A stretch of DNA of 64,000 bases from Salsipaludibacter albus (lineage in GTDB: Bacteria > Actinomycetota > Nitriliruptoria > Nitriliruptorales > Nitriliruptoraceae): NCBI RefSeq assembly GCF_019798055.1, contig NZ_JAHOPH010000002.1, positions 124,001 to 188,000 on the forward strand. Direction: 5' to 3'. Position 1 is the first letter of the stretch, and each line of letters opens with the position of its first letter. A program made the position numbers and the translations under genes. Shown in pieces: positions 4,455-62,248 of the stretch. Under the pieces are notes generated by a model. It saw only the letters and a list, made by a program, of their open reading frames with translations, did no database searches and was not told the DNA's origin.

Positions 4455-4480
4455 GTTTGGGCACTGGGCATGTGGGGAAG
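4455..4480 (+). promoter_or_regulatory. SigB/SigF-type promoter, GTTT-N16-GGGAAG
   Basis: GTTT at 4455-4458, 16-base spacer, GGGAAG at 4475-4480. It ends 26 bp before the epimerase ATG, so the leader would be about 20 nt. Confidence 0.65.
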
Positions 4481-4506
4481 GAAGGGAGTCCACCTGACGA
4501 GGATCA

Positions 4507-5571
4507 ATGATGCGGGTCGTGGTGACGGGCGCAACGGGCAACGTGGGCAGTGCGGTCGTGGCGGCGCTGGTCGCGCGTGGCGACGTCGACGTCGTCGGGG
4601 TGGCGCGACGGTGCCCCGACTGGCAACCGGGCGCCGTCGAGTGGCGGCAGGCCGACGTCGCCTCGGACCCACTCGATCCGCTCCTCGCCGGGGCCGACGC
4701 CGTGGTCCACCTGGCGTGGCTGATCCAACCGGTACGCGACGTCCCGGCCCTGCACGCCGCCAACGTCTCCGGCACCAGGCGGGTGGCCGAGTCCGCCGCC
4801 CGGGTCGGGGTCGAGGCGTTCGTCCACGCGTCGTCGGTCGGGGCGTACGCGCCCGGTCCGAAGGACGACCCCGTCGCCGAGGACTGGCCGGCCACCGGCG
4901 TGCCGGGTTCGCTCTACTCGCAGCAGAAGGCCCAGGTCGAGGGCTGGCTCGACCGGTTCGAGCAAGGCCATCCCGCCCTGCGCGTGGTCCGGATCCGCAC
5001 GGGCCTGGTGTTCCAGGAGGGGGCGGCCTCCGAGATCGCGCGGTACTTCCTCGGCCCGCTCCTGCCGTCCCCGCTGGTGGCGAGGATGGTCCCGATCGTG
5101 CCGGCGAACCCCGAGCTGGCCTTCCAGGCGGTGCATGCGTCCGACGCCGCGGACGCCTACGTCCGTGCCGCCCTCGGAACCGCCCGGGGTGCGTTCAACG
5201 TCGCCGCCGACCCGGTGCTCCGTGGAGCCGAGCTGGCCAGGTCCCTGCACGCCACGACCGTCACCGTCCCGCCCGGCGTGCTCCGGGCGGCCGCGGCAGC
5301 CACCTTCCGACTGCACCTGCAGCCGACGTCGCCCGGCTGGGTCGACCTCGCCCAGGCGGTGCCGGTGATGGACTGCGCCAGGGCACGCGTCGAGTTGGGG
5401 TGGCATCCCGCCCGTTCGGCGACCGGGGCGCTCGACGACCTGGTCGCGGGGTTCGCGGACCGCGCCGGGATGGCCACGCCGCCCCTGCGTCCGGGCGGCG
5501 GTGGACGGCTCATGACGCCCGAACCGTGGCCGACCCAGCCGGAGACGGCTCACTCGCCGGGACGCGCATGA
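4507..5571 (+). CDS. NAD-dependent epimerase/dehydratase (extended SDR)
   Basis: A 354-residue extended short-chain dehydrogenase. The N-terminal Rossmann motif is VTGATGNVGSAV. The active-site pair appears as YSQQKAQ (Tyr-x-x-x-Lys), with the usual upstream Ser in HASSVGAY. These enzymes act on nucleotide-sugars or related substrates with NAD(P). The next gene, a family 2 glycosyltransferase, starts inside the stop codon (ATGA, 5568-5571), which argues for a sugar-related role. Two ATGs in a row (4507 and 4510) follow a GAGGA site. A SigB-type promoter sits directly upstream. The exact substrate is unknown; an atypical SDR acting outside sugar metabolism is the alternative. Confidence 0.82.
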   Translation: MMRVVVTGATGNVGSAVVAALVARGDVDVVGVARRCPDWQPGAVEWRQADVASDPLDPLLAGADAVVHLAWLIQPVRDVPALHAANVSGTRRVAESAARVGVEAFVHASSVGAYAPGPKDDPVAEDWPATGVPGSLYSQQKAQVEGWLDRFEQGHPALRVVRIRTGLVFQEGAASEIARYFLGPLLPSPLVARMVPIVPANPELAFQAVHASDAADAYVRAALGTARGAFNVAADPVLRGAELARSLHATTVTVPPGVLRAAAAATFRLHLQPTSPGWVDLAQAVPVMDCARARVELGWHPARSATGALDDLVAGFADRAGMATPPLRPGGGGRLMTPEPWPTQPETAHSPGRA

Positions 5572-9684: not shown

Positions 9685-9709
9685 ATACCCCCCTCACGGC
9701 GCGCCAAAC
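9685..9709 (-). promoter_or_regulatory. SigB/SigF-type promoter, GTTT-N15-GGGTAT
   Basis: On the minus strand, GTTT at 9709-9706, 15-base spacer, GGGTAT at 9690-9685. It serves the three-gene glycosyltransferase run beginning at 9626, and the -10 is an exact match to the classical SigB/F hexamer. Confidence 0.7.
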
Positions 9710-11839: not shown

Positions 11840-11865
11840 CTACCCGGCCGCCCGTGGTGCCAAAC
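11840..11865 (-). promoter_or_regulatory. SigB/SigF-type promoter, GTTT-N16-GGGTAG
   Basis: Minus strand: GTTT 11865-11862, 16-base spacer, GGGTAG 11845-11840. It drives the sulfotransferase-glycosyltransferase pair and forms a divergent pair with the site at 11926. Confidence 0.62.
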
Positions 11866-11925: not shown

Positions 11926-11951
11926 GTTTGCGCCCGCCCGGCTGCGGGAAG
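11926..11951 (+). promoter_or_regulatory. SigB/SigF-type promoter, GTTT-N16-GGGAAG
   Basis: GTTT 11926-11929, 16-base spacer, GGGAAG 11946-11951. It lies upstream of the small helical protein gene at 12038, with a predicted leader of about 80 nt. Confidence 0.65.
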
Positions 11952-13529: not shown

Positions 13530-13555
13530 CTGCCCCGATCGGCGATGCGACAAAC
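13530..13555 (-). promoter_or_regulatory. SigB/SigF-type promoter (imperfect), GTTT-N16-GGGCAG
   Basis: Minus strand: GTTT 13555-13552, 16-base spacer, GGGCAG 13535-13530. One base departs from GGGWA. It faces the ion-channel gene. Confidence 0.45.
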
Positions 13556-15144: not shown

Positions 15145-15942
15145 GTGGTGTCGACCCCCCGCCCCGGTACCCGCACCCCTCACCCGGCTCGTCCGGTGTC
15201 CGATCGCGCCACCGTTGGCGCAACGCGGCTCGAGTCCTCGTCCCTGGACGACCTGGATGCGTTCCGGACGTGGCAGGAGACCCGCGACCCGGCGATCCGG
15301 GACGAACTCGTGATGCGGCACCTGGGCCTCGCCCACGCCATGGCGCACCGCTACGCGTCCCGCGGGATGGATCCCGAGGACCTGCGCCAGGTCGCCGTGG
15401 TGGGGCTCATCAAGGCGATCGACCGCTTCGATCCCGACCACGGCACGGCGTTCTCCTCGTTCGCGGTGCCCACCATCCTCGGCGAGGTCAAGCGCCACTT
15501 CCGGGATCGCGGCTGGACCATCCGGGTGCCGCGCCGCCTCCAGCAACTGCGCCGCGAGGTCGAGCGGTCGCGCCGCAGGCTCGAGCAGGAGCAGGCGTGC
15601 ACGCCACCACCGTCCGAGATCGCGGAGGACATCGACGAGCCTGTTCGTGACGTGATCGAGGCCATGGACCTCGGCAGCTGCTACCAGCCGTCGTCGCTCG
15701 AGGCCCGACGGCGACCGGACGTGCCGGACGGCTCGGTCGCGTCCGCCGAGACTGCCTGCGATCGCGCAGAGGTCGAGCGACTCCTCGGCCAACTGCCCGA
15801 GCGCGAGCGCCGGATCTTCGTGCTCCGCTACTACGCCGGCCTGACCCAGCAGGAGATCGCCGACCGGGTCGGCATCAGCCAGATGCATGTCTCACGGCTC
15901 TTGCGGGCCGGCATCCGGGACCTGCGTGAGTCCGCCGCCTGA
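15145..15942 (+). CDS. SigB/SigF/SigG-family RNA polymerase sigma factor
   Basis: A 265-residue alternative sigma factor. Region 2 is complete: LGLAHAMAHRYASRGMDPED, VGLIKAIDRFDPDHGTAFSS and GEVKRHFRDRGWTIRVPRR. Region 3 follows. Region 4 has LPERERRIFVLRYYAGLTQQ and a helix-turn-helix ending in QMHVSRLL. Members of this family recognise GTTT...GGGWA promoters and govern general stress or sporulation genes. Many sites of that form lie in this window, so they are likely targets. The start is one of two tandem GTGs (15145 or 15148) after GGAAGGA; the first ~25 residues are disordered. A possible degenerate RsbW-like gene follows at 16026. Confidence 0.92.
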   Translation: MVSTPRPGTRTPHPARPVSDRATVGATRLESSSLDDLDAFRTWQETRDPAIRDELVMRHLGLAHAMAHRYASRGMDPEDLRQVAVVGLIKAIDRFDPDHGTAFSSFAVPTILGEVKRHFRDRGWTIRVPRRLQQLRREVERSRRRLEQEQACTPPPSEIAEDIDEPVRDVIEAMDLGSCYQPSSLEARRRPDVPDGSVASAETACDRAEVERLLGQLPERERRIFVLRYYAGLTQQEIADRVGISQMHVSRLLRAGIRDLRESAA

Positions 15943-16025: not shown

Positions 16026-16616
16026 ATGAGGACGGAACGGTCCGACCCCGCCCGGGCGTCGGGGAGCAGCTCAGCAGGCCCGACTCCACGTGACCCGTTT
16101 GAGGATCGGCGCCGCGGGAACGCTGGCGGCGACTCGCACCAACCGTCGACCGACCGCCCCGTGCCTCGCCCTCCCGAGCCAGCCGTGCCGCTTCCCGCGC
16201 GTCCCGCCGACCTCACGCTCGACCTGCCTGCCGAGCCCGAACGGGCCGCCCTGGCCGGACGTGCGGCGGCCGTGGCCGTCACCAACACGAGCGATCCGCA
16301 CGTCCATGACGACGTCCGCCTCACGGTCGAGGAGTTCGCCCACGTGCTGGCAGTCGTCGCCGCGCCGCTCGCGCGCCTGCGCCTGCGCGTGTGGGTGGAC
16401 GCCACGACCGTGGTCGTCGAGGGCCGAGTGGCGGTGGCCCGGCCCGGATCCGCGCCGTCCCTGTCCGCGTTGTCATCCATCCTCCTGGACACCTTGACTC
16501 GGGCTCACGTGCTGGAGACGGAAGGCGACGAACTGGTCTTCCGGTTGTCGACCCTGGCGGCGGGCACGGGCCCGCCTGGTGCCCCCGGATCGTCGCCCGT
16601 CACCGGTCCCGACTGA
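16026..16616 (+). CDS. unknown protein, possible degenerate RsbW-like (GHKL) regulator
   Basis: A 196-residue soluble protein next to the sigma gene. The first ~60 residues are low-complexity. From about residue 95 the pattern VRLTVEEFAHVLAVVAAP, then LRLRVWVDATTVVVEGRVA, then FRLS runs parallel to the C-terminal part of the protein at 26459-26905 (LRLVVEEL, VQVRRDPSQVNIEVSVA). Both recall the helix-strand-strand order of anti-sigma kinases such as RsbW, but the ATP-binding Asn and Gly motifs are absent. A role in controlling the neighbouring sigma factor is inference only. The ATG at 16026 has GGGAG upstream. A SigB-type site at 16097-16121 inside the frame raises the possibility of a second start, for example the GTG at 16161. 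Confidence 0.55.
   Translation: MRTERSDPARASGSSSAGPTPRDPFEDRRRGNAGGDSHQPSTDRPVPRPPEPAVPLPARPADLTLDLPAEPERAALAGRAAAVAVTNTSDPHVHDDVRLTVEEFAHVLAVVAAPLARLRLRVWVDATTVVVEGRVAVARPGSAPSLSALSSILLDTLTRAHVLETEGDELVFRLSTLAAGTGPPGAPGSSPVTGPD
16097..16121 (+). promoter_or_regulatory. possible internal SigB/SigF-type promoter, GTTT-N15-GGGAAC
   Basis: GTTT 16097-16100, 15-base spacer, GGGAAC 16116-16121. It lies inside the annotated reading frame of the gene after the sigma factor. If real, it would let that protein, from a later start, be made under control of the sigma factor itself. Confidence 0.4.
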
Positions 16617-16670: not shown

Positions 16671-17174
16671 TCAGGCGCCGCCGCGGCGGCCGTCGAGGAG
16701 CGCGAGGGCGCCCGCCGCGGCCAGCCCGTAGACCAGGTGGGCGGTGGCGTCCTGCGCCAGGGTCTCGCGGTCGTACTCCCAGATCGGGTCGTAGAGTCCG
16801 AGCGCCCCCAGGACCGCGTAGCTGGCGGCGAACGAGCCCAGTCCGATCACGGTGCCGCGTCCCGGGACCGAGCGGGGGCCGGGCGCTGCTGCGCCGAGCA
16901 GGCCGTACCCGACCGCCGTCGCCCAGTGCACCGCGTTGCTCGCGAGATCCGCCCGCTCGTCCGGCACCTGGGTCCCGACTGACTCGGCCACCATCGCCGC
17001 CAGCTGCGCCGGTGGGCCCGCCTCGTCGACGTCGTCGGGGTCGCCGCCGAACTCGAACTCCCGGAAGCTCGACGTCCCGCCATCGGCGCGGTGGCGGGCA
17101 TACCACAGCATGTCCATCGCCAGGCCCCCGAGCAGCCCTGCGGTAATGCCGTCGATGATCCGTGTCCCTGCCAT
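16671..17174 (-). CDS. conserved membrane protein, DUF1440/YagU-like
   Basis: A 167-residue protein with about four hydrophobic segments. The N-terminal segment IIDGITAGLLGGLAMDMLWY, the middle VHWATAVGYGLLGAA and the C-terminal AHLVYGLAAAGALALLDG follow the arrangement of YagU-like (DUF1440) inner-membrane proteins. The family match is by pattern only. A soluble loop (about residues 30-65) is acidic. The ATG at 17174 has GGGAGA upstream. It lies 28 bp downstream of the katE stop on the same strand and may be read from the same transcript. Confidence 0.6.
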   Translation of the reverse strand: MAGTRIIDGITAGLLGGLAMDMLWYARHRADGGTSSFREFEFGGDPDDVDEAGPPAQLAAMVAESVGTQVPDERADLASNAVHWATAVGYGLLGAAAPGPRSVPGRGTVIGLGSFAASYAVLGALGLYDPIWEYDRETLAQDATAHLVYGLAAAGALALLDGRRGGA

Positions 17175-19317: not shown

Positions 19318-19343
19318 GTTCCCACTGGCGCGTCCGGTCAAAC
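19318..19343 (-). promoter_or_regulatory. SigB/SigF-type promoter, GTTT-N16-GGGAAC
   Basis: Minus strand: GTTT 19343-19340, 16-base spacer, GGGAAC 19323-19318, 52 bp before the katE ATG. It overlaps the last codons of the SDR gene, so katE can be transcribed separately from the genes behind it. Confidence 0.62.
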
Positions 19344-21505: not shown

Positions 21506-21585
21506 GGGTGCTCCTCGTGGTCGGGTCGTTCACAGGTCGGGTGGACGGTCGGACTGCGGCCAGCGACCGTCCACCCGTCCACGGG

Positions 21586-21611
21586 CTTCCCGTTCGCCCG
21601 CTCTGCGAAAC
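21586..21611 (-). promoter_or_regulatory. SigB/SigF-type promoter, GTTT-N16-GGGAAG
   Basis: Minus strand: GTTT 21611-21608, 16-base spacer, GGGAAG 21591-21586. It drives the alcohol dehydrogenase-SDR operon. It is back to back with the identical plus-strand site only eight bases away. Confidence 0.68.
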
Positions 21612-21619
21612 GCGGCCGC

Positions 21620-21645
21620 GTTTGTCCCGGCGGCACGGGGGGAAG
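21620..21645 (+). promoter_or_regulatory. SigB/SigF-type promoter, GTTT-N16-GGGAAG
   Basis: GTTT 21620-21623, 16-base spacer, GGGAAG 21640-21645. It drives the P450 gene at 21710. It has the same hexamers and spacer as the opposed site at 21586-21611. Confidence 0.68.
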
Positions 21646-21709
21646 CACCAGGCCGTCGCCCCGCATCGGTCGGGGACGAGTCCACGTGCTGCCCACGAGA
21701 GGATCCACG

Positions 21710-25073: not shown

Positions 25074-26459
25074 TCACGACTCGTGGGAGATCGGCGCCAG
25101 CTCGATCGGGACCTGCTCGCGGCAGCGCTCGAAGCGCTCGCGGACCTGCTCCGGGTCGTCGCCACCGAGGAACAGGTCGGCCATCCGGTAACTGTAGGAG
25201 TCCTGCATCGGCAGGTCCGACAGTGCCATCCCGGGCTCGACGTGGACGTGCAGGCGCAGTTCCGGGAACTGTTCCTGCACGCGGGAGAGTTCGTCCGGGG
25301 TGGGCGAATGGACGACCCGGGCGTCGCCACCGTGGTGGCGCAGCATGAACTTGCTGGCGAAGGGGAACTCGCCCTCGCCGGACGGGAAGTCGGGGTCCTG
25401 ACCCAGGGCGAGGCGGACGGCGACCTGGTGGTGGGACGCCCCGTCGACGAGCAGGAACAGGGGCGAGTGGGACTTCGAGATCCGCGGGTTGACCTCGAGC
25501 ACGTGCAACGCGTCGGTGTCGGGGTCGTGGAAGAACTCGATGTTGAAGGGCGCGCGGTCGTAGCCCAGCGCCGCCATGGTGCGGTCGGCGATCGCGTGCA
25601 TCCTGCGGGTCGTGGCCTCGTCCAGGGCGGACGGGTAGCCGTACTCGACGAGCGAGGAACCGTGGGCGCCGGCACGACCGGTGTCGATCGTGCCGTAGAT
25701 CGTCGTGGTCCCGCGCCACCGGTACCCCTCCAGTGTGCACTGTCGCGGGGCGGAGATGACGGCCTCCGCGAGGCAGTGGTGGCCGCCGACGTCCGCCACC
25801 TCGGCCGGCAGGTCCGCGTGCTCGAGCACCACGTCGAACGGTCGCGCGACCTCGTGGATCCCGTCTCGCAGCCGCTCGACGGCGTCGGCGAAGTCGCGGT
25901 CGTCGGCGACGTGGAACCCGAGGTACGACGAGTGCGACTTGATCGGCTTCACCCAGAACGGGTAGTCCAGGTCGACCTGGTCACGGGCGTCGTGGTCGAA
26001 CGGGTCGAAGACGGTGAAGTCGGGGACGTGCTCCGGGACCACCCGGGCCTGTTCCAGCCTGCTCCAGTACTTGTGCTCGCACTTCAGCACGGCCTCCAGG
26101 GAGGGCCCGGGGAGGTCGCAGTGATCGCGCAGGATCGGCAGGATGGTGCTGGTCGGGAAGTCCCAGTGCCCGATGATGCCGTCCACCGGCTCGTCGAACC
26201 GGTCGAGCACGTCGTGGGCGCGATCGAGTAGTCCGGCCATGGGCCCACCGGTCCAGTTCGCGATCTCGTCGGCGTCGAACAGGGCGTGGAACGCGATCTC
26301 GTCGGCGCCGCGCATGGTCGCCAGCAGGTCGCGATGGAAGCCGTCGAGCCCGACGACGAAGACGTTGCGGGGACGCTCGGGCAACTCCGGGGACGCCCGA
26401 CGTCCTCGACCGGGCGGGGGGTCTGGCCACGGGCGGGTCGATGACGGGCCCACGGCCAT
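25074..26459 (-). CDS. ATP-grasp domain protein
   Basis: A 461-residue ATP-grasp ligase-like protein. FWVKPIKSHSSYLGFHV supplies the ATP-binding Lys. The metal and ATP residues lie in APFNIEFFHDPDTDALHVLEVNPRI (Glu, Glu-x-Asn-Pro-Arg); this string is quoted with the functional residues in its two halves. The N-terminal NVFVVGLDGFHRDLLATM is a Rossmann-like preATP domain. Such enzymes join a carboxylate to an amine or thiol using ATP. The ATG at 26459 shares one base with the stop of the upstream RsbW-like gene (TGATG). Substrate is unknown. Pairing with a CocE-type hydrolase could mean making and hydrolysing the same amide or ester. Confidence 0.82.
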   Translation of the reverse strand: MAVGPSSTRPWPDPPPGRGRRASPELPERPRNVFVVGLDGFHRDLLATMRGADEIAFHALFDADEIANWTGGPMAGLLDRAHDVLDRFDEPVDGIIGHWDFPTSTILPILRDHCDLPGPSLEAVLKCEHKYWSRLEQARVVPEHVPDFTVFDPFDHDARDQVDLDYPFWVKPIKSHSSYLGFHVADDRDFADAVERLRDGIHEVARPFDVVLEHADLPAEVADVGGHHCLAEAVISAPRQCTLEGYRWRGTTTIYGTIDTGRAGAHGSSLVEYGYPSALDEATTRRMHAIADRTMAALGYDRAPFNIEFFHDPDTDALHVLEVNPRISKSHSPLFLLVDGASHHQVAVRLALGQDPDFPSGEGEFPFASKFMLRHHGGDARVVHSPTPDELSRVQEQFPELRLHVHVEPGMALSDLPMQDSYSYRMADLFLGGDDPEQVRERFERCREQVPIELAPISHES

Positions 26460-26905
26460 CAGGCGGGCTGACTCGACAGGACGAGCTGGGCCGTGACCGT
26501 GCGGGCGGTCTGGGTCACGGCCCAGTCCTGGGCCACGGCCGACACCACCGTGTCGGCGACGTCGGACACGCGGGAGGCGTCCGAGGACCCGTCGTGGGCC
26601 ACCGAGACCTCGATGTTCACCTGCGAGGGGTCCCGTCGCACCTGCACCCCGAGGCGCGCGCCGTCGGCCGCGTGGTCGACCAGCACGCCGGTCAACTCCT
26701 CCACGACCAGCCGGAGGTCGTGGAGGCGGGCGGCGTCGTCGATCGTCGGGGTCGCGGCCGCCGCACACCGGGTCCCGACGACCTCGGGCGCTGCCCTGTC
26801 TGCGGGGACGTGCAGGTGCAGCACCTCGCCCGACCCCCCGGTCCACCCCACCTCGGACTGCTGGTGTGCCACGGAGATGTCGGGTTGCGGGTGTCCCACG
26901 GACAT
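26459..26905 (-). CDS. unknown protein, possible degenerate RsbW-like (GHKL) domain
   Basis: A 148-residue soluble protein. The segment AARLHDLRLVVEELTGVLVD followed by LGVQVRRDPSQVNIEVSVAH, then WAVTQTARTVTAQLVL, has the order and spacing of an anti-sigma-kinase ATPase domain. It lacks the N-box Asn and the glycine-rich lid. It resembles the C-terminal half of the protein at 16026-16616. The ATG at 26905 follows an excellent GGGAGGA. A GTTT...GGGTAT promoter lies 33 bp upstream. It begins an operon with the ATP-grasp and CocE-like genes. A regulatory binding role is plausible; catalysis is unlikely. Confidence 0.55.
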   Translation of the reverse strand: MSVGHPQPDISVAHQQSEVGWTGGSGEVLHLHVPADRAAPEVVGTRCAAAATPTIDDAARLHDLRLVVEELTGVLVDHAADGARLGVQVRRDPSQVNIEVSVAHDGSSDASRVSDVADTVVSAVAQDWAVTQTARTVTAQLVLSSQPA

Positions 26906-26937: not shown

Positions 26938-26963
26938 ATACCCCGTCCCGCCGGCGCACAAAC
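26938..26963 (-). promoter_or_regulatory. SigB/SigF-type promoter, GTTT-N16-GGGTAT
   Basis: Minus strand: GTTT 26963-26960, 16-base spacer, GGGTAT 26943-26938. It serves the RsbW-like/ATP-grasp/CocE operon and is divergent from the formate dehydrogenase promoter. Confidence 0.7.
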
Positions 26964-26995: not shown

Positions 26996-27021
26996 GTTTG
27001 GCCACGGAACGGAGTGGGAAG
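26996..27021 (+). promoter_or_regulatory. SigB/SigF-type promoter, GTTT-N16-GGGAAG
   Basis: GTTT 26996-26999, 16-base spacer, GGGAAG 27016-27021. It lies 38 bp before the chosen GTG of the formate dehydrogenase gene and argues against any start further upstream. Confidence 0.65.
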
Positions 27022-30545: not shown

Positions 30546-30686
30546 AGGTCGGTCGAGCGGCGACCCGTCGAACGGCGGTGGCCTTCGGGACGTGGGACAC
30601 GGGGTCGTTCCGGGGGTGTCGCGGCAGCGCTCAGCCGACTTTACTGGTGGGTGCAGTCCGTCCGCCGACTTCGCCTGGAGACGATC

Positions 30687-32075
30687 GTGCCCGATGAGAG
30701 GTCCACGGTCGCACGCGGGGGAGGGACGTCACCGCCGCACGACGACGAGGACTGCGCGGACGTCCGGGAGTGGGTCGTCGGCCGCCTGGGCCACCTCGTC
30801 CGCACGCCGCTGAGCATCGCGGCGGCGACGACGCAACTCCTGGACAGCACTGACGACCTGGGTGACGTGGACCGCGAACTGGTCCGAGGCCTGGCCGATG
30901 CGATCGTCGACCTTCGCGACGGGGTCCTGCAGCTGGTCGAGGCCTCTCGATGGCCGGCCGGACCCGCCAGCGAGCCCGTGGCCGTCGACGACGTCGTCGA
31001 GGCAGCGGTGCGCCGGATCGAGGCCGACGCGCGGGATCACCACGACGTCCGGGTCCTGGCGGAGGTGGCGACCGGTGCCGGGGTGCTGATCCACCGAGAG
31101 GTGTTGGAGTGGGCGCTGGCCACACTCGTCCGCCAGGCAGCTCGTCGGGCCGCCCCGGGCGCGCTTGTCCGCCTCGTCGGGCAGTCGACTCCTCGAGGCC
31201 ACGTGGAACTCCGGGTCGTTGCGGGAGCGCTCCGCGAGGACGATGGCCAGGCGCCATCGTCGCCGTGGGTCGACGACCCCACGGCCGAGGTGGCGTCAGA
31301 GCTGCTGGTCAGGAGTGGGGCAGACGTCCGCCAGGTCGTCGCGGGGAAGGAGGCCCCCGCGGTGGAGATCGTCCTCCCGACCGCCCAGGGCGAGATCCCC
31401 CCGCCGGCGGAACGGCCCGCCTCGGTGGTCGACGGTGTCGCGTCGGTCCCCGACCCGGTGGGTCCGGAGTACGGCCTGCTCGTCCTGGTGGTCGAGGACG
31501 ACGATGCCCTGCGCCGCTTCCTCGAGGACACGCTGTCGTCGGAATGGCGCGTGGTGGCCGTGGGCAGCGCCGAGCAGGCGCTCGAGGCCGTTCGCGAGCA
31601 GCGTCCCGACCTGGTCATCTGTGACATCATGCTGCCGGGGGTGAACGGCGAGGCGCTGGTGCACGCCCTGCAGGAACTCGACGGCGTCGATCGGATCCCC
31701 CTGATCGTGCTGACCGGGCGCACCGACGAGCAACTCCGGGTCCGCCTGCTCCAGGATGGCGCCGACGACTACCTGACCAAGCCCTTCGCGCTGGGTGAAC
31801 TCCAGACCCGGATGGCCAACCTGGCCGCCAGTCACGTCGACCTCGATGACCTGCGCACCAAGGCCGAGGAAGCGCAGACGCTCGCCCAGCAACTGCAGAA
31901 CGCACTCACCAGCAGGATCATCATCGAGCAGGCCAAGGCCTACATCGCCTCCGAGCATGGCATTGACGTCGAGGAGGCCTTCGACTTGTTGCGGCGCCAC
32001 GCCCGGGACAACCAGGCGAAGCTCCACGACGTCGCGCACGCGATCGTGGAGTCCCGCCAGCCACCTTCGGCGTGA
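30687..32075 (+). CDS. histidine pseudokinase-REC-ANTAR fusion regulator
   Basis: A 462-residue regulator. Residues ~20-95 look like a HisKA dimerisation helix pair with RLGHLVRTPLSI (His36). The following ATPase-like region (about 100-230) lacks the N-box Asn and the G-boxes, so it should not bind ATP. A normal receiver domain spans ~265-385, with VVEDDDALRRFL, the phospho-acceptor Asp313 in VICDIMLPG, and Lys in YLTKPF. The C-terminus (about 395-455) is an ANTAR RNA-binding domain with IIIEQAKAYIASEHGI. The GTG at 30687 has GGAG upstream; the GTG at 30651 is an alternative without one. It precedes a CheB-CheR-kinase gene and could be a phosphorylation target of it. Confidence 0.82.
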   Translation: MPDERSTVARGGGTSPPHDDEDCADVREWVVGRLGHLVRTPLSIAAATTQLLDSTDDLGDVDRELVRGLADAIVDLRDGVLQLVEASRWPAGPASEPVAVDDVVEAAVRRIEADARDHHDVRVLAEVATGAGVLIHREVLEWALATLVRQAARRAAPGALVRLVGQSTPRGHVELRVVAGALREDDGQAPSSPWVDDPTAEVASELLVRSGADVRQVVAGKEAPAVEIVLPTAQGEIPPPAERPASVVDGVASVPDPVGPEYGLLVLVVEDDDALRRFLEDTLSSEWRVVAVGSAEQALEAVREQRPDLVICDIMLPGVNGEALVHALQELDGVDRIPLIVLTGRTDEQLRVRLLQDGADDYLTKPFALGELQTRMANLAASHVDLDDLRTKAEEAQTLAQQLQNALTSRIIIEQAKAYIASEHGIDVEEAFDLLRRHARDNQAKLHDVAHAIVESRQPPSA

Positions 32076-32153
32076 GGGCTGGGGCGGGCGTGGCCTATCG
32101 TGGGCCCCGGGCCCCGGCAACGGGGCGGTCCAGCCGAGTGGGAGGGCCTGGTC

Positions 32154-35100
32154 GTGGTCGATGACACCGTCGCCCCCGACGCGGAGGCCTCGGCCGGTGG
32201 ACCCGACGGACATGGCGATGACGCACCCCCCGAGCCCGTCACCATCGTGGGGATCGGCGCCTCCGCCGGTGGCCTGGCCGCGCTCCGGTCGTTCTTCGAA
32301 CGAGTCGACGCCGACAGCGGTGTCGCGTGGGTGGTCGTGGTGCACCTGTCGCCCGAACACGAGAGCCGCCTCGCCGAACTGCTCCAGCCCCACGCACCCG
32401 TGCCCTTCGAGCAGGTCTCGGCCACCACGCGGCTGGAGCCCGACCACGCCTACGTCATCCCGCCCAACGCCAACCTCAACAGCATCGACACACACCTGCG
32501 CCTCAGCGAGCTCGAGGAGCAGCGGGCGGAGCGCGCCCCCATCGACCACTTCTTCCGCACCCTGGCGCGCACCCACGACGGGGACGCCATCGGCGTGATC
32601 CTGACCGGGACGGGCTCCGACGGGACACTGGGCCTGCGGGACATCCGGGAGCAGGGTGGCCTGACGATCGTCCAGGATCCGGCCGGGGCCGAATACGGGG
32701 GGATGCCCCAGTCCGCCATCGCCGCGGCGACGGTCGACCTCGTCCTCGAACTGGACGAGATCCCGGGTCGCATCCTCGAGTTCGTACGGACCAGGCCCCG
32801 ACTGCCCGTGCCCCCGGCCGATGCCGAAGACGTCCTCGACTCCCGGGCCGAACACGACCTGCACCGCATCCTCGCGCAGGTTCGTACGGTGACCGACCGG
32901 GACTTCACCCGGTACAGGACGAGCACGATCCTGCGCCGCATCAGGCGCCGCATGCAGATGCGCCGCGCGGACGTGCTGGCCGACTACGTGTCGCTGCTGG
33001 GCGACGAGCCGCACGAGGTGCGCGCGCTGGCCGAGGACCTGCTGGTCACGGTGACGAGCTTCTTCCGCGACGAGACGGTGTTCCGGGTCCTGGAGGACGA
33101 CGCCGTCCCGGGACTGTTCGTCGACAAGGGGCCGGGCGACACTGTGCGTGCCTGGAGCGTCGGGTGCGCGACCGGTGAGGAGGCCTATTCGCTGGCGATC
33201 CTGCTGCTGGAGGCCGCCGGCCGGCTCGAGGCGCCCCCACGGGTCCAGGTGTTCGCCACCGACCTCCACGAGGCCTCGCTCGCGACCGCCCGTGCCGGCT
33301 TCTATCCGGGGAACATCGCCGGCGACACGGGGTCGGGCCGCCTCGCACGGTACTTCGACAAGGAGGACGGGGGGTATCGGATCCGCAAGGCCGTCCGGGA
33401 CGTCGTCGTGTTCTCGCCACACGACCTGCTGACGGACCCCCCGTTCTCGCGGCTGGACCTGGTGTCCTGTCGCAACCTCCTGATCTACCTCGAACGAGGC
33501 ATCCAGCACGACGTCCTCGACCTGTTCCACTACGCCCTCAACCAGGACGGTGTGTTGGTCCTGGGCACCTCCGAGACAATCGAGTCCCAAGAGTTGTTCA
33601 CGACCCTGGACGGGGACTCACGGGTCTACCGTCGACGGGACAGCCCGGCGCCCGAGCCGCGGCTCCCGGTGTTCCCGTTGCTCCCCGGATACGTGCCCGG
33701 CCTCCCCGTCGAAGGCCGCGAGGCTCGCACCTCGCCACCGATCGCGCCGGGTGCGCTCCACCAGCGCGTCGTCGAGCGACATGCGCCACCCAGCCTGCTG
33801 GTGGCCGCTGACGACCGGATCGTGCACCTCTCCGAACGTGCCGGTCGCTACCTGCTGCATCCCGGCGGGAGCCCGACCTCCAACGTGGTGAACCTGGTCC
33901 GCCCCGAGTTGCGCGCCGAATTGCGGTCAGCCCTGCATGATGCTCGTCGCGACACCACGCCTGTCCAGACGCCAGCTCGCCTCGTGGCGTTCAACGGTGA
34001 TTCCGGCTGGGTGCGGCTGGACGTCCGGGCCGCGGTCGAACCGGGGCTGGAAGGTTTCGTGCTGGTGCTGTTCATGGACGTGCCCGGTGCTGACGAGCCG
34101 ACCACCGGCACCACACGCAACGACGGCGAGGACGCCGAGCTGCAGTTGTTGCGCTCCGAGGTCGAGGTCAGCAAGCGGCGGCTGCAGTCCCTGGTCGAGC
34201 AGTACGAGACCAGCCAGCAGGAACTGCGAGCGTCCAACGAGGAGCTGCAGTCGTCCAACGAGGAACTGCGCTCCACCCTCGAGGAGCTGGAGACCGGGCG
34301 TGAGGAGTTGCAGAGCGTCAACGAGGAGTTGCAGACGGTCAACGAGGAGAATCGGCACAAGGTCGAAGAGCTGTCCCAGTTGTCCAGCGACCTGAAGAAC
34401 CTGTTCAGGGCCACCGACATCGCCACCCTGTTCCTGGACCGCAGACTGCGCATCCTCCGGTACACCCCGCGCGTGGCCGACCTGTTCAGCGTCCGGCCCG
34501 CCGACCGGGGCCGGCCGGTGACGGATCTCGCGCACCAACTCGACTATCCGGACCTGAGCGCCGACGCCGAGGCGGTCCTTGGCAGCCTGGTCCCCGTCGA
34601 GCGCGAGATCCCCGACGTCTCCGGTCGCTGGTACCTGACAAGGGTCTCGCCCTACCGCAGCAACGACGACCGGATCGAGGGCGTGGTCGTGACCTTCGTG
34701 GACATCAGTGGCCGAAGGCAGGCGGAGCAGGACCTGCTGGATGCGAAGGCCGACACGGACGCCGTCGCCGAGACCCTCCGCCAGAGCGAGAAGCGCTACC
34801 GGACGCTGTTCGAGACGATGGACGAGGGGTTCTGCGTGCTCGAGGTGGTCGTCGACGACGAGCAGTTCGTCGACCATCGGTTCATCGAGACCAACCCGGC
34901 ATTCGAGGAACAGACCGGGTTCCGGGACGCCGTCGGGTCCAGCCGGGCCGACCTCGACCCGCAGGACGGGCAGGAGTGGCTGGAGCGGTGCTGCCGGGTC
35001 GCGGTGACCCGCCAGCCCGTGCGCTTCGAGGGCAGGGCCGGCCGGTTCCCGGAGCGCTGGTTCGACATCTACGCCTTCCCCACGGCCGAGCACGAGGACC

Positions 35101-35873
35101 TCCGGGTCGCCGTGTTGCTGCGTGACGTGACCGACCGGCGCCGGGCCGAGGAGGACCTGCGTCGACTGACGGAGGAGCTCGAGCGGCGTGTCGCGACCCG
35201 CACCCGGCAGGCACAACTGCTGTCCGAGTCCTTGTCCTCGGCCGAGCAGCAGGAACGCACGCGACTGTCGGGACTGCTGCACGACGACCTCCAGCAACTC
35301 CTGTACGGCATCCAGATGCAGATCACCGTGGCCCGGCAGCAGGCTGCCAGCGGCGATGTCGACGAGACGGCGGTGGAACAGGCGTTGGCGTACCTCGACG
35401 AGGCCATCACGTTGACCCGCCAGCTGACGGTGGACCTCGACCCGCCGGTCCTTCGCGGTGACAGCCTGGTCGACGCCCTCCAGTGGCTCCAGACGCACAT
35501 GCGGGACCTCCACGGCCTCGAGGTCGAGGTCCGTGACGAGCTCGAGGAGGCCGACATCGGTCCCGATGGCGCCGAGGCGGACCGGATGCGCCGGCTGGTG
35601 TTCCAGGTCGTGCGCGAGTTGCTGTTCAACGTGGCGAAGCACGCCCAGGTCGACAGCGCCGTCGTCACCGCCGAGCGCGTCGACGACGAGGTCCAGGTCA
35701 CCGTTGCCGACCACGGGTTGGGTTTCGATCCTGCCAGGCTCGACACCGAGGACGAGGCAGGTTCCGGTCTCCACAGCGCCCGGGAACGGCTCCGCCTGCA
35801 CGGGGGCGAACTGCAACTGCAGGCGGCACCAGGGGAGGGCGTGACGGCAGTGATCAGGCTTCCGGCAGGGTGA
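32154..35873 (+). CDS. CheB-CheR-PAS-histidine kinase fusion
   Basis: A 1239-residue cytoplasmic signalling protein. A CheB methylesterase domain (about 25-215) keeps its triad in GIGASAGGLAAL (Ser), VVVHLSPEHES (His) and LTGTGSDGTLG (Asp). A CheR methyltransferase domain (about 235-495) has SFFRDETVF, WSVGCATGEEAYSLAIL and FSRLDLVSCRNLLIYL. A coiled coil (about 670-745) contains repeated SNEELQSSNEEL. PAS domains span ~750-860 and ~880-1000. The C-terminus is a HisKA_3 kinase with LSGLLHDDLQQLLYG (His1043) and a HATPase with ADHGLGFDP. No chemoreceptor gene is nearby, so methyl-group chemistry here may act in sensing. The likely partner is the convergent receiver gene, which overlaps it by 20 bp. 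The start GTG follows GGGAGGG. Confidence 0.9.
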   Translation: MVDDTVAPDAEASAGGPDGHGDDAPPEPVTIVGIGASAGGLAALRSFFERVDADSGVAWVVVVHLSPEHESRLAELLQPHAPVPFEQVSATTRLEPDHAYVIPPNANLNSIDTHLRLSELEEQRAERAPIDHFFRTLARTHDGDAIGVILTGTGSDGTLGLRDIREQGGLTIVQDPAGAEYGGMPQSAIAAATVDLVLELDEIPGRILEFVRTRPRLPVPPADAEDVLDSRAEHDLHRILAQVRTVTDRDFTRYRTSTILRRIRRRMQMRRADVLADYVSLLGDEPHEVRALAEDLLVTVTSFFRDETVFRVLEDDAVPGLFVDKGPGDTVRAWSVGCATGEEAYSLAILLLEAAGRLEAPPRVQVFATDLHEASLATARAGFYPGNIAGDTGSGRLARYFDKEDGGYRIRKAVRDVVVFSPHDLLTDPPFSRLDLVSCRNLLIYLERGIQHDVLDLFHYALNQDGVLVLGTSETIESQELFTTLDGDSRVYRRRDSPAPEPRLPVFPLLPGYVPGLPVEGREARTSPPIAPGALHQRVVERHAPPSLLVAADDRIVHLSERAGRYLLHPGGSPTSNVVNLVRPELRAELRSALHDARRDTTPVQTPARLVAFNGDSGWVRLDVRAAVEPGLEGFVLVLFMDVPGADEPTTGTTRNDGEDAELQLLRSEVEVSKRRLQSLVEQYETSQQELRASNEELQSSNEELRSTLEELETGREELQSVNEELQTVNEENRHKVEELSQLSSDLKNLFRATDIATLFLDRRLRILRYTPRVADLFSVRPADRGRPVTDLAHQLDYPDLSADAEAVLGSLVPVEREIPDVSGRWYLTRVSPYRSNDDRIEGVVVTFVDISGRRQAEQDLLDAKADTDAVAETLRQSEKRYRTLFETMDEGFCVLEVVVDDEQFVDHRFIETNPAFEEQTGFRDAVGSSRADLDPQDGQEWLERCCRVAVTRQPVRFEGRAGRFPERWFDIYAFPTAEHEDLRVAVLLRDVTDRRRAEEDLRRLTEELERRVATRTRQAQLLSESLSSAEQQERTRLSGLLHDDLQQLLYGIQMQITVARQQAASGDVDETAVEQALAYLDEAITLTRQLTVDLDPPVLRGDSLVDALQWLQTHMRDLHGLEVEVRDELEEADIGPDGAEADRMRRLVFQVVRELLFNVAKHAQVDSAVVTAERVDDEVQVTVADHGLGFDPARLDTEDEAGSGLHSARERLRLHGGELQLQAAPGEGVTAVIRLPAG

Positions 35874-36267
35874 CCATCCCCCGCAGTGACGCGGCGACGT
35901 GGGAGCCGCCGGCCACGACCCGGCGGAGGGCTTCGGGCACCTCCTCGGGCCGACCCTTGAGCACGTAACCCGCTGCTCCCCGGTCCAGCGCGCGCTGGAC
36001 GTAGGACCGTTCCCCGTGTCCGGACAGGACCAGGCAGGGGAGCGGCCAGCGCGATCGGACGTCGTCCACGAGGTCGAGACCGCTCCGGCCGGGCAGGGAG
36101 ACGTCGACCAGCACGACGTCGGGATCGGCGTCCTCGAGTCGCTCCATGGCCTGCTCGGCCGAGGAGGCCGCCCCACACACCACCAGGTCGTCCTGCAGGC
36201 CGAGGTAGTGGCGAAGGGTGGTGCGCATCACGTGGTGGTCCTCGACCACGAAGATCCTGATGGTCAT
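35854..36267 (-). CDS. single-domain response regulator receiver
   Basis: A 137-residue NarL-type receiver with no DNA-binding domain. IFVVEDHHVMRTTLRHYL has the acidic pair, VVLVDVSLPGRSGLDL the phospho-acceptor Asp (about 54), and AAGYVLKGRPEEVPEALRR the conserved Lys. HisKA_3 kinases normally pair with NarL-type regulators, and the convergent neighbour is such a kinase; the two genes overlap tail to tail by 20 bp. It may pass the phosphate on or bind a partner. The ATG at 36267 has only a weak GAGAGA site. Confidence 0.87.
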   Translation of the reverse strand: MTIRIFVVEDHHVMRTTLRHYLGLQDDLVVCGAASSAEQAMERLEDADPDVVLVDVSLPGRSGLDLVDDVRSRWPLPCLVLSGHGERSYVQRALDRGAAGYVLKGRPEEVPEALRRVVAGGSHVAASLRGMVTLPEA

Positions 36268-36385: not shown

Positions 36386-36410
36386 GTTTGGGGAGGCCTC
36401 CCCGGGGTCA
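36386..36410 (+). promoter_or_regulatory. weak SigB/SigF-type promoter, GTTT-N15-GGGTCA
   Basis: GTTT 36386-36389, 15-base spacer, GGGTCA 36405-36410. The -10 differs from GGGWA at one position. It lies 86 bp before the first gene of the holin-like/DUF3618/YihY operon. Confidence 0.38.
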
Positions 36411-36495
36411 GGCTTCGGACGAACCAACCGGTCGGACGACGCAGGACGAACCGTCCGGCAGGGCAGGACCGACAGCCACGACCAAGGAACCCCCC

Positions 36496-43369: not shown

Positions 43370-43394
43370 GTTTGCGCGCGGCGGTCATGGGTAT
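43370..43394 (+). promoter_or_regulatory. SigB/SigF-type promoter, GTTT-N15-GGGTAT
   Basis: GTTT 43370-43373, 15-base spacer, GGGTAT 43389-43394. The GTG of the general-stress membrane gene lies 35 bp downstream. Confidence 0.7.
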
Positions 43395-44006: not shown

Positions 44007-44032
44007 GTTTGGCTCCCGCGGGATGCGGGTAT
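44007..44032 (+). promoter_or_regulatory. SigB/SigF-type promoter, GTTT-N16-GGGTAT
   Basis: GTTT 44007-44010, 16-base spacer, GGGTAT 44027-44032. It lies 66 bp before the qcrC GTG, so it may drive the cytochrome bc1 operon. Confidence 0.68.
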
Positions 44033-52126: not shown

Positions 52127-52152
52127 ATCCCCGGCAGGCGCCCACGGCAAAC
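52127..52152 (-). promoter_or_regulatory. SigB/SigF-type promoter (variant), GTTT-N16-GGGGAT
   Basis: Minus strand: GTTT 52152-52149, 16-base spacer, GGGGAT 52132-52127, 72 bp before ctaC. It is a divergent partner of the site at 52194. Confidence 0.5.
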
Positions 52153-52193: not shown

Positions 52194-52219
52194 GTTTGCC
52201 GTGGCGCCATCGCGGGAAG
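52194..52219 (+). promoter_or_regulatory. SigB/SigF-type promoter, GTTT-N16-GGGAAG
   Basis: GTTT 52194-52197, 16-base spacer, GGGAAG 52214-52219. It lies 34 bp before the antiporter ATG. Confidence 0.65.
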
Positions 52220-57748: not shown

Positions 57749-57749
57749 G

Positions 57750-59613: not shown

Positions 59614-59639
59614 CTTCCCGAGCCGATGACACGACAAAC
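59614..59639 (-). promoter_or_regulatory. SigB/SigF-type promoter, GTTT-N16-GGGAAG
   Basis: Minus strand: GTTT 59639-59636, 16-base spacer, GGGAAG 59619-59614. It serves the PoxB-like/enolase-family/FAD-FeS operon. Confidence 0.67.
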
Positions 59640-60299: not shown

Positions 60300-60369
60300 C
60301 GGGGAGGGGCGGACCAGCGCTCGTCCCGCCCGGTCGGGGAGAGGTGTTGCCGTCGACACGGGAACGGAC

Positions 60370-62190
60370 ATGGACGACTACCCGGACATCGCGGAGCTGG
60401 CGCTGGTCGGCGACTGCCACTCGGCTGCCCTGGTCGGGCTCGACGGCGGGGTCGAGTGGTGCTGCTTCCGGCGCTTCGACGCCCCGCCGGTGTTCGCCCC
60501 TCTGCTGGATCGCCGACGAGGTGGACGGTGCCTGGTCACGACCGTGGGGGAGCACACGACCACGCGTGCCTACGAGCCGGACACGAACGTGCTCCGCACG
60601 ACGTTCGAGGCGCCGGACGGCGTGCTGGAGGTCGTCGACGCCTTCGTGGTGGACGACACGCGGGCCAGTGGGTCGACGGGCGAGGTCGAGCCGCACATGC
60701 AGCTGGTGCGCTGGGCACGGTGCGTGGAGGGACGCGTCGAGCTCGAGGTCGACGTGCAGCCTCGCTTCGAGTACGGGCTCACGAGGCCGCGGATCGACCT
60801 TGTGGACGACGGACTGGTCACGGTGACCGGTGGTCCGGACGCACTGGTCGTCACATCGGACTTGCCCTTGGAGTCGGCCGACGCCACCGGCTGCGTGGCC
60901 CGCGAACGCCTCACGACCGGCGACGTGCGCTTCCTGAGCATCGAGTACCAGCGTCCGCACCAGTTGGAGGTGCGGCCACGCTCGCGCGACGAGATCGAGC
61001 AGCGACTCGACGGGACCCGGCGGTTCTGGCGACGCTGGTCGTCGCGGATCGGTTACGACGGTCCCCATCGCGACGCCGTGGTCCGCAGCGCCCTGGTCCT
61101 GAAAGCACTCACCAACGCGCCGACAGGTGCCATCGTGGCCGCCCCGACCACATCGCTGCCGGAAGCACCGTCCGGCGGACGGTCCTGGGACTACCGCTAC
61201 ACGTGGCTGCGCGACACGGCGCTGATCCTGGATGCCCTGTTCGCACTCGGCCTGGTCGACGAGGGCGAGGCGTTCGCGGCCTGGTTGCAACGCACGACGG
61301 CCGGTCGGGCCCACGACCTGCAGCCGTTGTACGGGGTCGGTGGCGAACGGCTCCTGCACGAGTGGGAACTGGACGGCCTGGCCGGCTATCGGTCGGCTCC
61401 CGTCCGGATCGGCAACGCCGCCTCCCAGCAGTTCCAACTGGACGTCCACGGCGAGCTGGTCGACGCGGTGTGGCGCCTGCATCGGCACGGCGGACAGGTG
61501 GACCGTGGGCTGTGGGCGTTCGTCAAGGAGGTCGCGGACGTCATCACCGAACGATGGGACCAGCCCGACCAGGGCATCTGGGAGGTCCGCGGCCGTCCCC
61601 GGCACTTCGTGTCGTCCAAGGTCTTCGCCTGGATCGGCCTCGCCCGTGCCGCCTCCATGGCGACTGACCTGGAACCGGACCTGGACACCACGGAGTGGGA
61701 GGACGCCGCCGCGGCCGTCCGCAACGACGTGGCGGAGCGCGGGGTGGATCCCGACAGCGGGGCGCTGACGCGCTCGTACGACGACGATGCGGCCGACGCG
61801 GCCAACCTGGTCGCGGTGCTCGAGGGCTTCCCGGACGAGGACGGGTCGATCCTGCCCGCGACGGTCGACCGGGTCCTCGAGGAGTTGTCGGCGGCCGAGG
61901 GGTTGGTCCACCGCTACCGGGTCGACGACGGGATCGACCACGATGAGGGGGCCTTCGTGATCTGCTCGTTCTGGCTGGTCTCGGCGCTGGCCGCCGTGGG
62001 CGAGGTCGAGCGGGCCCATGAGCGGTTCACGGCGATCCTGGACCACGCCAACGACGTGGGACTGCTGAGCGAGGAGGTCGATCCCGACGACGGCGCGCTG
62101 CTGGGCAACTTCCCCCAGGCATTCAGCCATGCTGGCCTGGTCCAGGCGGCACTGGACCTCGCCGCTGCGGACGGGCGGGGAGCCGCATGA
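60370..62190 (+). CDS. glycoside hydrolase family 15 (glucoamylase/trehalase-like)
   Basis: A 606-residue GH15 enzyme. The N-terminal beta-sandwich has ALVGDCHSAALVGLDGGVEW and CCFRRFDAPPVFAPLLD. The (alpha/alpha)6 catalytic barrel (about 230-600) has RSWDYRYTWLRDTALIL, the general-acid region GIWEVRGRPRHFVSSKVFAW (Glu) and the base region LLSEEVDPDDGALLGNFPQA (Glu). This build fits bacterial GH15 enzymes acting on trehalose or maltooligosaccharides. It has no signal peptide, so it is cytoplasmic. The ATG at 60370 is chosen at the start of homology (MDDYPDIAELALVG); upstream in-frame codons are possible. Confidence 0.9.
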   Translation: MDDYPDIAELALVGDCHSAALVGLDGGVEWCCFRRFDAPPVFAPLLDRRRGGRCLVTTVGEHTTTRAYEPDTNVLRTTFEAPDGVLEVVDAFVVDDTRASGSTGEVEPHMQLVRWARCVEGRVELEVDVQPRFEYGLTRPRIDLVDDGLVTVTGGPDALVVTSDLPLESADATGCVARERLTTGDVRFLSIEYQRPHQLEVRPRSRDEIEQRLDGTRRFWRRWSSRIGYDGPHRDAVVRSALVLKALTNAPTGAIVAAPTTSLPEAPSGGRSWDYRYTWLRDTALILDALFALGLVDEGEAFAAWLQRTTAGRAHDLQPLYGVGGERLLHEWELDGLAGYRSAPVRIGNAASQQFQLDVHGELVDAVWRLHRHGGQVDRGLWAFVKEVADVITERWDQPDQGIWEVRGRPRHFVSSKVFAWIGLARAASMATDLEPDLDTTEWEDAAAAVRNDVAERGVDPDSGALTRSYDDDAADAANLVAVLEGFPDEDGSILPATVDRVLEELSAAEGLVHRYRVDDGIDHDEGAFVICSFWLVSALAAVGEVERAHERFTAILDHANDVGLLSEEVDPDDGALLGNFPQAFSHAGLVQAALDLAAADGRGAA

Positions 62191-62221
62191 CGACGCCGGA
62201 CCTGGTCGACGCCCGGTGGAT

Positions 62222-62248
62222 GTTTCCGGAGCGTCCGGGGCGGGGTAC
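62222..62248 (+). promoter_or_regulatory. SigB/SigF-type promoter, GTTT-N17-GGGTAC
   Basis: GTTT 62222-62225, 17-base spacer, GGGTAC 62243-62248. It lies 29 bp before the SDR ATG. Confidence 0.6.

What the first reader, a model, noticed from the sequence alone, without database searches (positions are those of the whole stretch)
4455..62248. A dense general-stress promoter network: 18 GTTT-N15/17-GGG(W)A sites in one 64 kb window
Reading both strands by eye I find GTTT followed 15-17 bases later by GGGAAG (7 sites), GGGTAT (4) or a near variant (GGGTAG, GGGCAG, GGGAAC x2, GGGTCA, GGGGAT, GGGTAC). Sixteen of 18 extend to GTTTG. All but one lie outside genes or at a gene end, correctly oriented and 26-86 bp from a start codon. 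GTTT is rare in DNA this GC-rich. SigB/SigF-family sigma factors are known to use GTTT...GGGWA, and one is encoded at 15145-15942. Inferred targets include katE, a P450, formate dehydrogenase, glycosyltransferases, bc1/caa3 and an antiporter. The frequent GGGAAG hexamer may be a lineage-specific preference.
Basis: partly seen in the sequence, partly recalled or inferred. Interest (0 to 1): 0.8.

Follow-up and report, generated by a model that had tools for sequence, protein, structure and literature searches.

The report
Self-contained SigF stress-promoter island
Nearly all the stress-type promoter sites in this actinobacterial genome are packed into one 70-kb stretch together with the one sigma factor likely to read them and two likely brakes on it, so the switch and the genes it controls appear to sit side by side, whereas better-studied relatives scatter most of these genes around the chromosome.

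Summary
All 18 sites exist as described. The strict core (GTTT-N15-17-GGGWA) occurs 15 times in the window against 0.16 expected in shuffles. All 18 are intergenic, point at a gene, and end 29-86 nt before its start codon. The wider context changes the reading. The 4.25-Mb genome holds only 20 strict sites, 17 of them in one 70-kb cluster (window 4455 to about 10 kb past its end). That cluster also holds the genome's only strong SigB/SigF/SigG-type sigma gene and two proteins of the UsfX/RsbW anti-SigF type, each with its own site. So this is a local, nearly complete SigF regulon ("island"), not a genome-wide network. It covers katE, P450, formate dehydrogenase, an antiporter, hemerythrin, glycosyltransferases and extra bc1 and caa3 copies. 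Most genomes of the same family lack the sigma gene, and their homologues of four target genes have no site. A genome of another family in the class has its own 84-kb cluster, sharing several targets. Promoter type and targets match mycobacterial SigF. The near-total clustering and bc1/caa3 as direct targets are the new part. No expression data exist; activity is inferred.

The parts
4455..4480 (+). SigF-type promoter site GTTTG-N-GGGAAG; heads epimerase (4510) + glycosyltransferase-2 like (5568)
   Evidence: PWM 22.3; 29 nt to start; Pfam
9685..9709 (-). site (GTTT-N15-GGGTAT); heads glycosyltransferase operon 9626->6434
   Evidence: PWM 20.4; 58 nt to start; Pfam
11840..11865 (-). site (GGGTAG); heads sulfotransferase 11777->10860
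   Evidence: PWM 20.0; 62 nt
11926..11951 (+). site (GGGAAG), divergent from 11865; heads 81-aa protein 12038
   Evidence: PWM 21.0; 86 nt
13530..13555 (-). site (GGGCAG); heads ion-channel-like protein 13452->12469
   Evidence: PWM 18.9; 77 nt; Ion_trans_2 4e-5
15145..15942 (+). SigB/SigF/SigG-family sigma factor, regions 2, 3 and 4; the only strong member in the genome; no recognisable site of its own upstream
16097..16121 (+). site (GTTT-N15-GGGAAC); heads UsfX/RsbW-like protein 16185
   Evidence: PWM 18.4; 63 nt
16185..16616 (+). UsfX/RsbW-like anti-sigma candidate, 28% identical to 26459-26905
19318..19343 (-). site (GGGAAC); heads large catalase katE 19266->17203 (+ 16671-17174)
   Evidence: PWM 20.3; 51 nt; catalase
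21586..21611 (-). site (GTTTC, GGGAAG); heads alcohol dehydrogenase 21505->20318 and SDR 19338
   Evidence: PWM 19.3; 80 nt; the 63%-identical gene in G042 also has a site
21620..21645 (+). site (GGGAAG), divergent from 21611; heads cytochrome P450 21710-22966
   Evidence: PWM 22.5; 64 nt; p450 1.8e-11
26938..26963 (-). site (GGGTAT); heads UsfX/RsbW-like protein 26905->26459, then 25074 and 22982
   Evidence: PWM 22.5; 32 nt
26459..26905 (-). UsfX/RsbW-like anti-sigma candidate; model matches M. tuberculosis UsfX-RsfB (8ih8) and SigF-anti-sigma (8jzt) structures
26996..27021 (+). site (GGGAAG), divergent from 26963; heads formate-dehydrogenase-like molybdopterin enzyme 27059-30118 and following genes
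   Evidence: PWM 22.3; 37 nt
36386..36411 (+). weak site (GGGTCA); heads 36496, Holin-X, DUF3618, BrkB operon
   Evidence: PWM 12.8, leave-one-out 7.2; Pfam; the Holin-X homologue in G042 has a site
43370..43394 (+). site (GTTT-N15-GGGTAT); heads membrane protein 43429
   Evidence: PWM 19.8; 34 nt
44007..44032 (+). site (GGGTAT); heads bc1-type operon cytochrome c - Rieske - cytochrome b 44099-47143
   Evidence: PWM 22.3; 66 nt
52127..52152 (-). site (GGGGAT); heads caa3 oxidase operon 52055->47207
   Evidence: PWM 18.0; 71 nt
52194..52219 (+). site (GGGAAG), divergent from 52152; heads Na+/H+ exchanger 52254
   Evidence: PWM 21.8; 34 nt
59614..59639 (-). site (GGGAAG); heads TPP enzyme 59537->57750, MR/MLE enzyme, FAD/Fe-S oxidase
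   Evidence: PWM 22.5; 76 nt; 62%-identical G038 gene also has a site
62222..62248 (+). weaker site (GTTTC, N17, GGGTAC); heads SDR 62278
   Evidence: PWM 13.2, leave-one-out 9.7; 50%-identical G038 gene also has a site
30651..36267 (.). RR-ANTAR protein (30651-32075 +), CheB-CheR-PAS-histidine kinase (32154-35873 +), single-domain response regulator (35854-36267 -): possible signal input to the sigma
   Evidence: role inferred

Best explanation
The sites are promoters of the SigF/SigB class, read by RNA polymerase carrying the sigma factor encoded at 15145-15942. Sigma, two UsfX/RsbW-like partner proteins under its own promoters, a histidine-kinase/response-regulator set, and about two thirds of the surrounding transcription units form one 70-kb regulon island (window 4455 to about 74862). 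In normal growth the sigma is presumably held by an anti-sigma factor. On a signal (stationary phase, oxidative or respiratory stress; inferred) it is released and switches on, as one block, protection (catalase, hemerythrin, antiporter), redox enzymes (P450, formate dehydrogenase, alcohol and short-chain dehydrogenases, TPP enzyme), surface glycosylation, and an extra bc1-caa3 respiratory branch. The two anti-sigma-like genes, being targets themselves, give feedback. Shown by sequence: site reality, position, clustering, sigma family, predicted fold of one anti-sigma candidate, and absence of sites at homologues in genomes lacking the sigma. Inferred: that this sigma reads them, the signal, the sign of the feedback, and induction.
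For: 15 strict sites vs 0.16 expected; 17 of 20 strict sites of the genome inside 70 kb (p 6e-28); PWM >=14: 19 in the island vs 4 in 404 kb elsewhere. 21/21 intergenic and correctly oriented, 29-159 nt from a start. Sigma best matches SigBFG (227.8 bits), next best in the genome 128.7 bits. Motif and targets equal the published M. smegmatis SigF regulon: katA GTTT-N16-GGGAA, NhaA, hemerythrin, P450, RsbW3. Anti-sigma candidate is predicted to fold like UsfX in UsfX-RsfB and SigF complexes. Sigma not found in same-genus G001 or most of the family; catalase, ADH, epimerase and glycosyltransferase homologues there (53-73% identity) have no site at the gene. Second cluster in G038: 11 of 18 loose sites in 84 kb of 4.64 Mb (p 2e-15), with TPP enzyme, SDR, DUF2254 under sites in both genomes and caa3 in an operon under a site. 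G042 ADH and Holin-X homologues carry sites.
Against: No transcription start or expression data. About a third of the units in the island, sigF included, have no recognisable site. Class genomes G048 and G044 have the sigma but no site at their ADH homologue (G044 contig short), and G048 has none >=13 at its glycosyltransferase region. In G038 the sigma gene lies 1 Mb away from the cluster. The sigma scores slightly below NCBI's curated SigBFG cut-off (227.8 vs 234.35). The two anti-sigma candidates match no Pfam anti-sigma model and lack the usual N-box asparagine (read from sequence).
Confidence: 0.85

Rival explanations
1. The motif is a transcription-factor operator or other repeated element rather than a sigma-factor promoter.
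For: Near-perfect GTTTG is more conserved than in many SigB regulons (S. coelicolor SigB -35 is GNNT); the two halves could be bound by a regulator.
Against: Both halves, the 15-16-nt spacing, orientation and distance to the start codon all match published SigF promoters, and a SigF-family sigma lies inside the cluster. Spacing of 15/16/17 and asymmetric halves fit -35/-10 boxes better than an operator.
Confidence: 0.05
2. The promoters are SigF-class but read by another sigma factor of the genome (for example the two C14 genes), the sigma at 15145 having drifted to another role.
For: The island sigma is on a long branch and no relative above 49% identity was found.
Against: The C14 genes score 100 bits lower on SigBFG; the island sigma lies amid the sites; genomes of the family without it have no comparable site enrichment.
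Confidence: 0.06
3. On origin (compatible with the best explanation): the cluster was imported as one block by horizontal transfer, sigma and promoters together, which is why the rest of the genome lacks the sites.
For: Sigma not found in same-genus G001 and most of the family; G000's sigma falls outside the class's own SigF clade; flank and island give few or no DNA matches in G001.
Against: The best DNA matches of island genes are mostly in the same family (catalase 78%, ADH 76%, GT operon 71%); GC3 matches the flanks; no tRNA in or next to the island; the tree position has long-branch warnings; G038 suggests an older clustered regulon.
Confidence: 0.25
4. Chance enrichment from base composition, with promoter-like matches carrying no function.
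For: High-GC DNA is rich in GGG; 2 of the 18 sites are weak.
Against: Shuffles 0.16 vs 15; genome-wide reversed-pattern control 4 vs 20; all intergenic.
Confidence: 0.01

Closest known systems
SigF regulon of Mycobacterium smegmatis (PMC4694148; PMC7693655)
   Same: GTTT-N15/16-GGGWA promoters; targets include catalase, Na+/H+ antiporter, hemerythrin, P450, dehydrogenases, glycosyltransferase; an RsbW (MSMEG_1787) is itself a SigF target; part of the regulon lies near sigF (28 of the 137 genes lowered in both phases are MSMEG_1758-1804, my count from Table 1)
   Different: There about 80% of the regulon is scattered; here 17 of 20 strict sites are in one 70-kb block. There the anti-sigma rsbW1 is co-transcribed with sigF and loss of the aa3 oxidase induces the regulon; here bc1 and caa3 genes carry the promoters, and no anti-sigma gene lies upstream of sigF in an operon with it.
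SigB homologues of Streptomyces coelicolor (PMC8346170)
   Same: -10 with almost invariant GGG and A at position 5, GTTT-type -35 in several groups
   Different: Nine paralogous sigmas with overlapping promoters; here one sigma of the type.
OsdR/DevR dormancy cluster of S. coelicolor SCO0167-SCO0219 (PMC5069765)
   Same: A stress/dormancy regulon concentrated around its regulator gene, with respiratory genes (nitrate reductase)
   Different: Controlled by a two-component response regulator with palindromic operators, not by a sigma factor.
Listeria stress survival islet SSI-1 (PMC5541211)
   Same: A contiguous set of stress-tolerance genes
   Different: 8.7 kb, five genes, no sigma factor or partner proteins inside.

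Membership tests
SigB/SigF/SigG-family sigma factor (TIGR02980) | Sigma-70 regions 2, 3 and 4, best match to SigBFG among sigma models | tested here: met
   Pfam Sigma70_r2/r3/r4; best NCBIfam SigBFG 227.8 bits
SigB/SigF/SigG-family sigma factor (TIGR02980) | Score above NCBI curated cut-off 234.35 | tested here: not met
   227.8 bits, just below, so the formal family call is narrowly missed; of the 14 control genomes only 1 passes the cut-off
Actinobacterial SigF promoter | GTTT -35, GGGWA -10, 14-17 nt spacer, within about 100 nt of the start, oriented to the gene | tested here: met
   consensus
Actinobacterial SigF promoter | Transcription starts 6-10 nt after the -10 and depends on the sigma | not testable with these tools
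   no RNA data
Actinobacterial SigF promoter | Sites present where the sigma is present and absent where it is not | tested here: inconclusive
   Absent at homologues in seven sigma-less genomes; present in G000, G038, G042; but G048 and G044 have the sigma without the ADH site
UsfX/RsbW anti-sigma factor (26459-26905; 16185-16616) | SpoIIAB/RsbW fold | tested here: met
   Predicted model of 26459-26905 vs 8ih8 (UsfX-RsfB) E 3e-6 and 8jzt (SigF complex) 4e-6, TM about 0.6, mean pLDDT 76; 16185-16616 only by 28% identity to it
UsfX/RsbW anti-sigma factor (26459-26905; 16185-16616) | Recognised by HATPase_c_2 / intact ATP-binding N-box | tested here: not met
   only HATPase_c at E 0.055; PF13581 genome search lists neither; EELTG / EEFAH in place of E..N
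UsfX/RsbW anti-sigma factor (26459-26905; 16185-16616) | Binds the sigma factor | not testable with these tools
   needs two-hybrid or co-purification

The most novel reading that the evidence does not exclude
A general-stress response organised as a single separable genetic unit: sigma factor, feedback partners, promoters and effectors, including a spare bc1-caa3 branch, in one 70-kb island whose promoter code exists almost nowhere else in the genome. Lineages of this class keep, lose or regain it as a block, and the sigma and its promoter code diverge together (N16 GGGAAG here, N15 GGGCAT/GGGTAG in G038).
Probability: 0.3. Interest if true: 0.75.

Novelty: new variant of a known kind. Interest (0 to 1): 0.6.

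Why it matters
Sigma-factor regulons are usually thought of as trans-acting and scattered. Here target choice can be read from DNA alone in a lineage without expression data, and clustering is extreme enough to ask why a stress regulon would be kept together: co-inheritance, loss as a unit, or chromosomal domain effects. The direct placement of bc1 and caa3 genes under such promoters ties the SigF response to respiration from the output side, where mycobacteria are known to sense respiration on the input side. Genomes of the same family with homologous genes but without the sigma or sites make a natural experiment on how promoters are gained and lost.

Tried and rejected
Chance from composition: rejected by shuffles, the reversed-pattern control and intergenic placement. 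Genome-wide network: rejected, off-island density is at background. A close donor of the sigma: a GTDB genome-contig scan and a 397-genome phylum sample gave nothing above 49% identity. Sigma tree: placement unsure because of long branches. Mobile-element boundary: no tRNA in or next to the cluster, GC3 like the flanks. A site upstream of sigF itself: none scoring >=7. Gene 21530-22906(-) from my caller: rejected for P450 21710-22966(+). Naming the organism: not achieved; Actinomycetota from gene content and relatives, Nitriliruptoria-like only as a guess from genome sizes. G028, a family member with a 43% sigma, has no cluster. Paper searches for a described sigma regulon confined to one island found none, which is not proof of absence.
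Full report
Observation. The strict pattern GTTTN{15,17}GGGWA occurs 15 times in the window; dinucleotide-preserving shuffles give 0.16 on average and never more than 1. Near variants bring the number to exactly the 18 listed. GTTT itself occurs only 30 times on both strands. The GTTT-GGGWA distance peaks sharply at 16. With one gene call corrected (P450 21710-22966 +), all 18 sites, plus three just beyond the window, lie between genes (7.6% of positions do) and point to a start codon 29-159 nt downstream, 29-86 nt within the window. Two sites, 36386 and 62222, would not stand alone.

Wider context. The window is bases 124001-188000 of contig C12 (219 kb) of a 4.25-Mb, 97% complete assembly. 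The whole genome holds 20 strict matches, 17 of them between C12:128455 and 197939; a reversed-pattern control gives 4. One of the three outliers reads as the 16S rRNA 806R segment (from memory). A looser pattern gives 15 of 19 in the same 70 kb. A weight matrix built from 21 sites scores 14 or more 19 times in the island and 4 times in 404 kb of other DNA from the genome; in repeated half-and-half cross-validation 88% of held-out sites score at least 12. The binomial probability of such clustering is about 6e-28, before allowing for choosing the densest stretch, which costs a factor of about 60.

The sigma factor. 15145-15942 has sigma-70 regions 2, 3 and 4 and matches SigBFG best (227.8 bits, cut-off 234.35). 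It is the only strong member in the genome; next are two genes on C14 at about 128 bits. It has no recognisable site of its own.

Partners. Two small proteins downstream of sites, 16185-16616 and 26459-26905, are 28% identical and miss Pfam's anti-sigma models. The model of the second (mean pLDDT 76) matches first the M. tuberculosis UsfX-RsfB and SigF-anti-sigma structures, then B. subtilis RsbW and Bacillus SpoIIAB (E 3e-6 to 6e-4). The N-box asparagine is replaced in both, so kinase activity is doubtful. In M. smegmatis an RsbW (RsbW3) is itself a SigF target and boosts the response. Feedback here is likely; its sign is open. The histidine kinase with CheB/CheR/PAS domains and two response regulators at 30651-36267 are candidates for signal input; in M. 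smegmatis a two-component system monitors respiration for SigF (PMC10950880, title and abstract).

Targets. Sites head: epimerase/glycosyltransferase genes; sulfotransferase; an ion-channel-like protein; katE; alcohol dehydrogenase and SDR; P450; formate-dehydrogenase-like enzyme; a Holin-X/DUF3618/BrkB operon; cytochrome c-Rieske-cytochrome b; caa3 oxidase; Na+/H+ exchanger; a TPP enzyme operon; SDR; and beyond the window DUF2254 and hemerythrin. The genome has three COX1 and three cytochrome b genes, so the island's bc1-caa3 set is an additional one. The list parallels the experimentally defined M. smegmatis SigF regulon, in which katA has GTTT-N16-GGGAA.

Comparative tests. Among 101 relatives the sigma was not found (E<=1e-20) in the same-genus genome or in most of the family (only the best 25 candidates per genome were scored). 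Their homologues of the catalase, ADH, epimerase and glycosyltransferase genes (53-73% protein identity) have no site at the gene: most of these loci have no match scoring 11 or more anywhere, and the few weak matches in the others are not upstream of these genes. Among genomes that do have a sigma of this type, G042 carries a site before its 63%-identical ADH and before a Holin-X homologue, but G048 and G044 do not at ADH. G038, a single-contig genome of another family, has its own cluster: 11 of 18 loose sites in 84 kb of 4.64 Mb (p about 2e-15), mostly 34-117 nt before genes. Of 18 reciprocal best hits between the C12 region and G038:281-401 kb, 12 pair island genes with the G038 cluster and only 2 pair non-island genes with it. 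TPP enzyme (62%), SDR (50%) and DUF2254 (29%) have a site directly upstream in both; caa3 lies in an operon with a site at its head. G038's sigma gene is 1 Mb away, so co-location with the sigma is not universal. Sigma-less G007 and G012 have few, scattered matches. In G100 and G099 of the same phylum, small groups of sites surround the sigma gene.

Origin. Island genes find their best DNA matches mostly in the same family, have ordinary GC3, and there is no tRNA boundary. The sigma falls outside the class's own SigF clade, but on a long branch with warnings, and nothing above 49% identity was found. Retention of an old cluster and reacquisition both remain possible.

Comparison with the known. 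Promoter class, sigma family and target types are those of actinobacterial SigF; that part is known. In M. smegmatis 28 of the 137 genes lowered in both growth phases lie near sigF (MSMEG_1758-1804; my count), so partial clustering has a precedent. Near-total clustering, bc1/caa3 as direct targets, and a second cluster in another family are the new elements. Hence 'new variant of a known kind'.

Limits.

Noticed in passing
window 32154-35873 (+), 30651-32075 (+), 35854-36267 (-): A 1239-aa CheB-CheR-PAS-HisKA_3-HATPase protein next to an RR-ANTAR protein and a single-domain response regulator, inside the island; possible stress-signal input.
   Followed up: partly
window 3544-4254 (-) and L002:9954-10667 (-) (window scale 73954-74667): Two GAF-ANTAR proteins lie near the two ends of the site cluster.
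   Followed up: no
L002:280-8470 (window scale 64280-72470): Complex-I-like membrane module (chain 3, weak NuoB-like, H, J, K, L, M, N homologues) just beyond the window, inside the cluster but without a recognisable site of its own.
   Followed up: partly
L149-L154 (G038 C1:281001-401000): Second cluster of SigF-type sites in another family, strict ones all GTTT-N15-GGG, often GGGCAT.
   Followed up: yes
L161 (G100 C94) and L167 (G099 C10): Small groups of SigF-type sites around the sigma gene; in G100 COX2/COX1 homologues follow the sigma gene.
   Followed up: partly
L156 (G042 C8:84276-86602): A second, divergent SigF-like sigma (about 35% identity) flanked by three sites.
   Followed up: no
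L013 (G000 C6:50001-70000): Stretch with lower GC (0.666) and 29 GTTT, holding one of the few off-island sites (C6:63839-63864); possibly foreign DNA.
   Followed up: no
window 53550-56609 (-): 1019-aa FAD-linked oxidase fused to Fe-S/CCG domains, in an operon with MR/MLE and TPP enzymes under one site; an unassigned redox pathway.
   Followed up: no
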